NCBI RefSeq assembly: GCF_000378125.1 | Contig: NZ_KB899243.1 | Span: 372,001 to 436,000, forward strand | Reading direction: 5' to 3' | Length of the DNA: 64,000 nt | From: Rudaea cellulosilytica DSM 22992 | GTDB taxonomy: Bacteria > Pseudomonadota > Gammaproteobacteria > Xanthomonadales > Rhodanobacteraceae | In this document: positions 7,820 to 36,019 of the stretch, piece by piece | How positions within the stretch are numbered: the first letter of the stretch is position 1 | How the letters are laid out: each line of letters opens with the position of its first letter | Notes under the pieces: generated by a model | What the model saw: the letters and a program-made list of their open reading frames with translations, nothing else | Databases searched by the model: none | Told to the model about the DNA's origin: nothing | Position numbers and translations under genes: made by a program

Positions 7820-7979
7820 AGAACCTGTCCTCAAAGCGTAGCGAGCGAAGAGCCGATCCTATCTAAGATCGGGCGCGACGCCGGAGCGCAGGAACCGGAG
7901 TGTACTCAAATGTACATGAGGATTCCGAGCACCGCCGGCGCGCAAATTATCGAGCGCAGTAGCTTTGAGGACAGGTTCT
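7820..7979 (-). repeat. Core-and-arms intergenic element, copy 1
   Basis: A 160-bp element bounded by perfect 18-bp inverted arms (7820-7837 and 7962-7979; AGAACCTGTCCTCAAAGC and its complement). Read on the minus strand, the interior starts TACTGCGCTCG and ends CTTCGCTCGCTAC, like the copies at 9715-9859 and 35882-36019, with shared internal blocks GCCGGCGGTGCTC, GTACACTCCG and CTGCGCTCCGGCG. This copy also holds a private hairpin (CCGATC...GATCGG). It ends 15 bp before the LysR start. No conserved reading frame runs through the core. Confidence 0.85.
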
Positions 7980-8924: not shown

Positions 8925-9715
8925 ACGACTTCGCCCCGCACGTCACCAAGAAGCGCTTCGGTCAGCACTTCCTCCACGACAAAAATATACTAAGCCGCAT
9001 TGTGGAATATGTGGCAGCGAAGCCCGGCGAGCGCATCGTCGAGATCGGCCCCGGCGAGGGCGCGCTGACCCTGCCGCTGCTGCGCGCCGCACGCAGCCTG
9101 ACCGTGATCGAACTCGACCGCGACCTGATCGAACCGCTGCGCACTCGCGCAAGCGGCGTCGGCGAATTGACGATCGTGCATCGCGACGTGCTCGGAGTGG
9201 ACATAGCCGCACTCGCCGCCGGTGCCACGATCCGTCTCGTCGGCAACCTGCCCTACAACATCTCCACGCCGATCCTGTTCCATTGCCTCGATAATGCTGC
9301 GGCGATCCACGACATGCACTTCATGCTGCAAAAAGAGGTGGTCGAGCGCATGGCCGCCGGCCCGGGCAGCAAGACCTACGGCCGGCTTTCGGTGATGCTG
9401 CAATTGCGCTGTGCGGTCGAGCCGCTGTTCGACGTGCCGCCCACCGCGTTTACGCCGCCGCCGAAGGTCGATTCCGCCGTCGTGCGCCTCGTGCCGTTGT
9501 CGCCCGACAAGCTGCCGCAAGCTGATTTCGCCGTGGTCGACCGCGTCGTCCGCGCCGCGTTCGGCCAGCGTCGCAAGACCTTGAGCAATGCATTGAAAGG
9601 CGTGGCCGATGCGGACGATCTCGCTGCCGCGGGCATTGATCCGCGCCTGCGCGCCGAGCAGTTGGCGCCTGCCACGTTCGTCGCCCTGGCGCAACATCTG
9701 CAAGCGAAAGGTTGA
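8921..9715 (+). CDS. rsmA: 16S rRNA dimethyladenosine transferase RsmA (KsgA)
   Basis: Dimethylates the two adjacent adenines in the 3'-terminal hairpin of 16S rRNA (A1518/A1519 in E. coli numbering), a late small-subunit maturation step. It has 264 residues with the KKRFGQHFLHD N-terminus, SAM motif VEIGPGEGALT, catalytic NLPYNIST, and a C-terminal domain with FGQRRKTLSNAL. Translation is probably coupled to lysR through the ATGA overlap. The last base of its TGA stop is also the first base of repeat copy 2. Confidence 0.97.
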   Translation: MNDFAPHVTKKRFGQHFLHDKNILSRIVEYVAAKPGERIVEIGPGEGALTLPLLRAARSLTVIELDRDLIEPLRTRASGVGELTIVHRDVLGVDIAALAAGATIRLVGNLPYNISTPILFHCLDNAAAIHDMHFMLQKEVVERMAAGPGSKTYGRLSVMLQLRCAVEPLFDVPPTAFTPPPKVDSAVVRLVPLSPDKLPQADFAVVDRVVRAAFGQRRKTLSNALKGVADADDLAAAGIDPRLRAEQLAPATFVALAQHLQAKG

Positions 9716-9859
9716 GGGAACCTCTAAAAACCTACTGCGCTCGATAATTTGTGCGCCGGCGGTGCTCGGAATCCTCATGTACTTGTATGTACACTCCGGT
9801 TGCTGCGCTCCGGCGACGCACAAATTCTCTTCGCTCGCTACGGTTTTTAGAGGTTCCCT
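9715..9859 (+). repeat. Core-and-arms intergenic element, copy 2
   Basis: A 145-bp element filling most of the rsmA-apaG gap. Perfect 18-bp inverted arms (AGGGAACCTCTAAAAACC at 9715-9732 and its complement at 9842-9859) enclose a core that starts TACTGCGCTCG and ends CTTCGCTCGCTAC. Inside, AATTTGTGCG and CGCACAAATT form a second perfect 10-bp stem, and GTAC occurs on both sides of a central loop. The left arm begins on the final A of the rsmA stop. The apaG start is 34 bp beyond the right arm. Confidence 0.88.
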
Positions 9860-9893
9860 TGATTCGCCCGACGCCGCTGCGCACAATCCAGAC

Positions 9894-34928: not shown

Positions 34929-35882
34929 ATGGAACGCTTAACCGCCCGCGAACTGTTCGACAAGGTGTCCGAACGCCTGGCCCTGCGCTGGGTCGCAGGC
35001 GAAGCCGGCGAGAAGCGTGCGATCGCCCCGGCGGAGAAGCAGGCGCGACGCCCCTCGTTGGCCGGCTATCTCAACATCATCTATCCGAACAAGATCCAGA
35101 TCATCGGCACCGAGGAGCTGAACTGGCTCAACGGTCTCGACACGCGCGAGCGCTGGGAGGCGGTCGAACGCATCATCGCCTTCCAGCCGACCGCACTGAT
35201 CGTGACCAAGGACCAGGATGTGCCCGCCGACGTGCTCACCGCGGCGAACGAGAGCAACACGCCGATCTGGCACAGTCCCAAGCGCGGCCACGAACTGCTG
35301 ACCTACCTGCAGTACCACCTCACGCGCCTGCTCGCGCGTCGCGTGACCCTGCACGGCGTGCTCATGGAGGTCTACTCGATCGGCGTGCTGATCACCGGCG
35401 AATCGGGTTCGGGCAAGAGCGAACTCGCACTCGAACTGATCACGCGCGGCCATCGCCTCGTCGCCGACGATGCGCCCGAATTCACCCAGATCGCGCCCGA
35501 CGTGATCGATGGCTCCTGCCCGGAGATCCTGCAGGACCTGCTCGAAGTGCGCGGCCTCGGCATCCTCAACGTGCGCGAGATGTTCGGCCAGACCGCGGTC
35601 AAGCCGTCGAAGTATCTGCGCTTGATCGTCCACCTCGCCACGACGAAGAAGATCGACAACGACGAAACCGGCCTCGGTCGCATCTACGGCGACAACAGCT
35701 ATCGCGAGATCCTCGACACCAAAGTGCCGCAGACTACGATCCCGGTCGCCGCCGGCCGCAACCTCGCCGTGCTCGTCGAAGCTGCCGTGCGCAACCACAT
35801 GCTCAAGACCAAGGGCATCGACCCGGCGCAGACCTTTCTCGACCGCCAGGCACATCAGATGCTGCGCCAGTCGCCGTGGTGA
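34929..35882 (+). CDS. hprK: HPr kinase/phosphorylase
   Basis: Phosphorylates HPr on serine 46 with ATP or pyrophosphate and reverses the reaction. It has 317 residues: N-terminal domain of about 135 residues, then the kinase domain with Walker A GESGSGKS (157-164), the [11 protein letters not shown] catalytic region and the HPrK signature [16 protein letters not shown]. The start has no clear Shine-Dalgarno. In most proteobacteria ptsN lies directly upstream; here there is only repeat copy A. The last base of the TGA is the first base of repeat element copy 3. Confidence 0.96.
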
Positions 35883-36019
35883 TCGCGCCCGGCAAAACCT
35901 ATTGCGCTCGCCAGCTCGCACGCCGGCGGTGCTCATGTACAGTAATAAGTACACTCCGCTTCCTGCGCTCCGGCGTCGCGCAACCTGGCTTCGCTCGCTA
36001 CGGTTTTGCCGGGCGCGAT
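35882..36019 (+). repeat. Core-and-arms intergenic element, copy 3
   Basis: A 138-bp element between hprK and rapZ. Perfect 18-bp arms (ATCGCGCCCGGCAAAACC at 35882-35899, complement at 36002-36019) enclose a core that starts TATTGCGCTCG and ends CTTCGCTCGCTAC. Shared blocks GCCGGCGGTGCTCATGTAC, GTACACTCCG and CTGCGCTCCGGCGTCGCGC identify it with copies 1 and 2. It begins on the last base of the hprK stop and ends 14 bp before the rapZ ATG, so it makes up nearly the whole gap. Confidence 0.88.

What the first reader, a model, noticed from the sequence alone, without database searches (positions are those of the whole stretch)
9715..9859. A family of elements with a fixed core and locus-specific perfect 18-bp inverted arms
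Copies at 7820-7979 (reverse), 9715-9859 and 35882-36019 share a core that starts exactly TAYTGCGCTCG and ends exactly CTTCGCTCGCTAC. Each core is enclosed by 18-bp arms that are perfect inverted repeats, yet the arms differ between loci (AGAACCTGTCCTCAAAGC, AGGGAACCTCTAAAAACC, ATCGCGCCCGGCAAAACC). Ordinary MITEs have conserved ends and a variable interior; here it is reversed. Either the arm is copied inversely from the target on insertion, or the stem is held by selection or by template-switch correction of palindromes. I know of no described family with this layout.
Basis: seen in the sequence. Interest (0 to 1): 0.85.

Follow-up and report, generated by a model that had tools for sequence, protein, structure and literature searches.

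The report
Jumping DNA hairpins with swapped ends
These are short, non-coding jumping elements whose folded middle is kept across many bacteria while their ends match the recognition sites of different transposases, and they tend to sit right on the stop codon of the gene before them.

Summary
Three window copies have a near-identical core inside locus-specific, perfectly paired arms, and the genome has about 75 such places, short and deleted forms included. Over 165 distinct copies from this genome, its genus and other Beta- and Gammaproteobacteria, 139 left arms differ and 24 arm pairs are perfect over 17 bp; pairing stops sharply after 17-18 bp.

The arms are not copied from the target. A relative has the empty rsmA-apaG site with a single TTGA, which the window has on both sides of the element, so both arms arrived with it. 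The arms look like terminal inverted repeats of IS5-family insertion sequences: a same-genus genome has an 839-bp IS5-family element with one end identical over 17 bp to an arm of a core-bearing copy there. GA-type arms go with 3-bp duplications, GG-type also with 4-bp ones.

So this is a MITE whose core was probably carried by different IS5-type transposases. Half of the core resembles Rfam sRNA sX9, below Rfam's cut-off. Unusual are the kept hairpin core with covarying stems, and placement on the stop codon of the preceding gene in a preferred orientation (72 of 153 left edges, 28 of 153 right). Movement is well supported; the core's role is inferred.

The parts
9712..9715 (+). left copy of the target duplication TTGA; its last three bases are the stop codon TGA of the upstream gene (rsmA, a name recalled from the sequence)
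   Evidence: empty site with a single TTGA in G002
9716..9732 (+). left arm (17-bp terminal inverted repeat, GG type)
9733..9841 (+). core, 109 bp, long imperfect hairpin
9842..9858 (+). right arm (17-bp terminal inverted repeat)
9859..9862 (+). right copy of the target duplication TTGA
7821..7837 (-). arm (GA type) of the copy between two divergently read genes
   Evidence: gene calls
7838..7961 (-). core, 124 bp, with the exchanged GATCGG hairpin module
7962..7978 (-). arm (GA type)
35883..35899 (+). left arm, directly after the TGA stop (35880-35882) of the upstream gene (hprK by recall)
35900..36001 (+). core, 102 bp, shortened near the apex
36002..36018 (+). right arm

Best explanation
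The element is a non-autonomous DNA transposon of the MITE kind: a 17-bp terminal inverted repeat, a structured core of about 109 bp, and the inverted repeat again. It moves as one unit when an IS5-family transposase, supplied from elsewhere, binds both ends, and insertion duplicates 3 bp (TNA, with GA-type arms) or 4 bp (with GG-type arms). Shown: unit insertion with target duplication at one site, IS5-type ends, and two arm types on one core. Inferred: the transposases act in trans, and the core has repeatedly passed to ends recognised by another IS5-type transposase. The core is kept because its folded form matters; most likely (inferred) it is carried as RNA in the 3' end of the upstream gene's message, where insertion on the stop codon in one orientation is tolerated or useful.
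For: Empty site with a single TTGA. Direct repeats outside 17-bp arms: 24 of 165 for 3-mers (shuffled mean 4.5, max 14) and 12 of 165 for 4-mers (mean 0.62, max 4). GA arms: 15 of 41 with 3 bp, 0 with 4 bp; GG arms: 6 of 44 with 3 bp and 6 with 4 bp; Fisher p = 0.003. An 839-bp element in same-genus genome G003 with a 258-aa IS5-family transposase (NF033580, 219.8 bits, cut-off 110; PF13340 and PF01609) has a right end identical over 17 bp to the left arm of copy L099 in that genome. Apical stem: 775 of 790 cells Watson-Crick in 158 copies, shuffled max 594, 15 fully paired types. Stop codon at the left arm edge 72 of 153, right 28 of 153, background about 4 and 8 of 153 per 7-bp window; left only 59, right only 15.
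Against: The window's genome has no PF01609 or PF13340 match at E 0.001, so its copies are probably not being moved by such an enzyme now. Target repeats are visible in a minority of copies, and the 35882 copy shows none. Of the 15 GA-type copies with a 3-bp repeat, 8 come from one genome (Glomeribacter), so the p-value is too kind; 80 of 165 copies fall in neither simple class. The G003 insertion sequence shows no clear target duplication. That the two duplication lengths mark two IS5 subgroups is recalled, not tested. No function of the core was tested, and wobble pairs favour the strand opposite to the mRNA-sense strand, which sits badly with a simple reading as a 3'-end RNA.
Confidence: 0.8

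Rival explanations
1. The core is the mobile unit and drops into the loop of existing palindromes such as terminators or short MITEs, so the arms are native target sequence.
For: Arms differ between loci, cores and arm types reassort, and short palindromic copies with most of the core missing exist (L263-L266).
Against: The rsmA-apaG empty site has neither arm, target repeats lie outside the arms, and an insertion sequence bears the same ends. The four short copies keep pieces of the core, so they look like deletions.
Confidence: 0.05
2. Palindrome correction by template switching during replication copies one arm or stem strand onto the other and so keeps arms and stems paired without selection.
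For: Two-sided changes at sites filled in two genomes: 1 of 3 changed arm positions in L042/L333, and 2 of 5 in L377/L390, though there the junctions are not quite the same, so these may be separate insertions (my reading of the printed arms).
Against: In L100/L317 both arm changes are one-sided and in L167/L384 no two-sided change restores a pair. Mismatched internal loops are kept: the position next to the apical stem, G.T on the minus strand (A.C on the plus strand), stays in 147 of 158 copies, where correction would erase it.
Confidence: 0.15
3. A stable regulatory RNA (sX9-like) or terminator gene that is not mobile and is kept by selection at each locus.
For: Structure with covarying stems, a match to sX9 below Rfam's cut-off, position after stop codons.
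Against: Target duplications, an empty site, further sites without the element in relatives, about 75 places in one genome, and 33 of 66 copies between genes read in one direction.
Confidence: 0.1

Closest known systems
Bacterial MITEs carried by IS5-family transposases
   Same: Inverted ends with target duplication, no gene, many copies, and an insertion sequence with matching ends in a relative
   Different: The interior is kept across classes of bacteria and across end types; ends vary while the core stays. That ordinary MITEs differ in this is recalled
Rfam RF02228, Xanthomonas sRNA sX9
   Same: Aligns over all 76 model positions to the right half of the 9715 element, same strand (29.3 bits, E 0.0007)
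   Different: Below the curated cut-off of 44 bits; the match covers 9777-9857 and neither the left half nor the left arm; Rfam lists it as an sRNA, not a mobile element
Enterobacterial ERIC/RU and neisserial Correia elements (recalled)
   Same: About 100-150 bp, intergenic, long imperfect hairpins, transcribed with neighbouring genes
   Different: Those have conserved ends; no sequence comparison was made here
GTAG-tagged REPs with a RAYT tyrosine transposase
   Same: Palindromic, dispersed, the core edge reads GTAG on one strand
   Different: REPs are 20-40 bp (start of abstract and passages, PMC3733652); here target duplications and 17-bp ends are present, and the genome's only Y1 transposase match has no copy in its 3.3-kb locus

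Membership tests
MITE (non-autonomous DNA transposon) | terminal inverted repeats | tested here: met
   sharp 17-18 bp arms
MITE (non-autonomous DNA transposon) | target site duplication and empty site | tested here: met
   TTGA at 9715 against G002; enrichment in 165 copies; not visible in most copies
MITE (non-autonomous DNA transposon) | ends shared with an autonomous element | tested here: met
   G003 insertion sequence with an open transposase frame; none found in the window's own genome
MITE (non-autonomous DNA transposon) | movement by that transposase | not testable with these tools
   needs a transposition assay
Rfam sX9 | score over the curated cut-off | tested here: not met
   29.3 against 44 bits for the 9715 copy; no match at cut-off in the window
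REP/RAYT element | RAYT gene flanked by the repeat | tested here: not met
   one Y1_Tnp match in the genome; no copy of this element in its 3.3-kb locus
Element moved by an IS5-family transposase | arm type matches duplication length | tested here: met
   p = 0.003 on 27 cases, 8 of them from one genome; the subgroup rule itself is recalled

The most novel reading that the evidence does not exclude
A folded nucleic-acid module that outlives its transposases: it exchanges both terminal repeats at once, so that it can be moved by whichever IS5-type enzyme is resident, and it settles on stop codons in one orientation because its RNA acts on the end of the upstream message.
Probability: 0.3. Interest if true: 0.8.

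Novelty: new variant of a known kind. Interest (0 to 1): 0.6.

Why it matters
If right, a set of sequences annotated in many genomes as an sRNA (sX9 is in the top-20 prevalence table of PMC9029176, passages read) may be pieces of a transposable element. It also gives a natural test of how non-autonomous elements change transposase, and of why mobile hairpins are kept on stop codons in one orientation.

Tried and rejected
Rfam at its cut-offs gave no match in the window; at looser thresholds the MIR8788 and PAGEV matches are taken as chance. Phage and plasmid collections gave one record each, the phage search with a 601-base query that included flanks, the plasmid search with the 109-base core, so no empty site could be sought there. 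The RAYT gene of the genome was considered and dropped. A full-length insertion sequence with the Glomeribacter arm was sought in four genomes: matches in two, 63 in all, of which 30 were read as loci. In those loci the paired arms lie within about 300 bp; L278 has a lone arm with no partner within 1.5 kb and no transposase seen among its open frames, and L285 has a partner too decayed for the pattern. So no long element was seen there, but half of the matches were not read. Literature searches for a description of the element gave nothing that I recognised from the listings. Of the five papers that hold RF02228 I read passages of two; the other three were not opened. The original sX9 paper (identifier from recall) is not held. 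An RNA reading on the strand opposite to the mRNA is hinted at by wobble counts (P3 111 G.U against 16 A.C in 130 copies; arms 95 against 41 in 120 copies), but copies are related, so I do not rest on it. The tree of cores is poorly supported (3 of 35 inner branches starred).

Full report
Gene names rsmA, apaG, hprK and rapZ are recalled from the sequences; no family search was run on them.

What is there. The window has three copies: core 9733-9841 (plus), 7838-7961 (minus) and 35900-36001 (plus), each inside perfectly paired arms. A covariance model of 21 copies found 96 matches in the own genome, scoring 150 of 3507 first candidates; leaving out the 21 rows that repeat a place on the other strand, I count 75 places. 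They include longer forms with an added hairpin of roughly 68 bp, forms with an exchanged module, and four short deletion forms. Of 40 genomes searched with the core (own and 39 relatives), 19 have a match: all 16 of the genus, own included, and 3 of the order; none of the 8 from other genera of the family. One of 72,556 plasmid records and one of 50,697 phage records matched.

The arms. Pairing is high to position 16-17 and near chance from 19. Of 165 distinct copies, chosen for at least 11 of 17 paired positions (56 own, 46 genus, 63 from other genomes), 24 are perfect over 17 bp and 139 left arms are distinct. Outside 17-bp arms, direct repeats of 3 bp (24 copies, shuffled mean 4.5) and 4 bp (12 copies, mean 0.62) are enriched. 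GA-type arms show only 3-bp repeats (15 of 41, all TNA; 8 of the 15 from Glomeribacter); GG-type arms show 4 bp (6 of 44) or 3 bp (6 of 44); the other 80 copies show 6 of 4 bp and 3 of 3 bp. This difference is what two IS5 subgroups would give; the subgroup rule is recalled.

How it arrives. In G002 the rsmA-apaG junction reads AAAGG TTGA TTCGCCC; the window reads AAAGG TTGA, element, TTGA TTCGCCC. Both arms therefore came with the core. Of 69 own candidate rows (a few misplaced) compared with the fetched parts of relatives, 11 had an alignable site. Eight lack the element in each relative aligned, although several have other unaligned bases there. One (L225) is filled in G010; one (L254) has what looks like a shortened form in G002; and at hprK-rapZ several relatives lack it while G001 and G005 carry a different copy, with other arms, right after the stop codon.

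What moves it. The own genome has no PF01609 and no PF13340 match at E 0.001 and one Y1 transposase match with no copy in its locus. Among 17 other genomes, 11 have PF01609 and 9 have PF13340. In the same-genus genome G003 an 839-bp element with an IS5-family transposase has ends GAACCTATCTCAAA, and its right end equals the left arm of copy L099 of that genome over 17 bp; it shows no clear target repeat. Elements in Thiobacillus and Rhizobacter also have GAACCT-type ends. Most loci screened gave no such ends.

Core and ends are modular. On a tree of 38 own cores (37 labelled, seven labels set by hand), four arm classes need 17 changes (least possible 3, shuffled mean 19.7, as low in 17 of 200 shuffles), and starred branches force at least 3 for three of the classes. 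Of 165 copies, 88 have both arms in the same simple class, 2 have mixed classes and 75 have at least one unclassed arm. Because copies were chosen for paired arms, mixed ones are under-counted. In Rhodanobacter A1T4 a related end (GAGCCTGTTCACGATCT) bounds an unrelated-looking core.

Change at one site. Four sites are filled in two genomes. Reading the printed arms: L042/L333, 1 of 3 changed positions is two-sided; L100/L317, 0 of 2; L167/L384, none that restores a pair; L377/L390, 2 of 5, with junctions that do not quite agree. This leaves selection and template switching both open.

The core folds. Its minus strand folds as RNA into one long hairpin in 14 representatives of distant taxa, with fixed internal loops and changing stems. 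The apical stem is Watson-Crick in 775 of 790 cells (shuffled max 594) with 15 fully paired types. The right half aligns to sX9 below Rfam's cut-off. From passages read: PMC9029176 lists sX9 among the 20 most prevalent sRNAs, PMC10924375 reports sX9 genes raised under copper in Xanthomonas, and PMC6337395 lists predicted sX9 in two Herbaspirillum genomes.

Where it sits. The stop of an open frame of at least 100 codons lies at the left arm edge in 36 of 55 own, 14 of 44 genus and 22 of 54 other copies, and at the right edge in 11, 7 and 10; 12 of 165 were dropped for short flanks; left only 59, right only 15, p = 2.6e-7. In the window 34 of 444 TNA sites outside sense codons are stop codons (home-made gene calls), so a TNA target alone does not predict this. 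Copies are not independent. With home-made gene calls, 33 of 66 own copies lie between two genes read in the core's plus direction and 8 between two read against it. Orientation-dependent retention is my preferred reason; orientation-dependent targeting is not excluded.

Verdict. An ordinary mode of movement with an unusual kept core, changeable ends and a striking stop-codon placement: a new variant of the MITE kind.

Noticed in passing
L269 and L279 (Rhodanobacter sp. A1T4): A second hairpin family with ends GAGCCTGTTCACGATCT, TAA-type flanks and a different core that shares only the GTACACTCC-like apex.
   Followed up: partly
L288, L290, L292, L294 (Glomeribacter gigasporarum): 288-bp forms of the element with a long extra insert in the hairpin, all four with the same 17-base end on both sides.
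   Followed up: partly
hprK-rapZ junction, L100, L317 and window 35882: Different copies with unrelated arms sit directly after the stop codon of the same gene in different species: a repeated landing place.
   Followed up: partly
L299 (G010), rsmA-apaG gap: The closest relative by ApaG has an unrelated inverted repeat (GGGGCGCGATTCATCGCGCCC) directly after the rsmA stop.
   Followed up: no
L267, 1074-2193: The genome's only Y1 transposase match has a partial duplicate of its 3' part (128 bp at 94%, 82 bp at 84%) upstream.
   Followed up: no
Salmonella Infantis record AFYI01000003 and Aeromonas caviae record NZ_AP026896: Single matches to part of the core at 86% in the phage and plasmid collections, the second in a record of chromosome size.
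   Followed up: no
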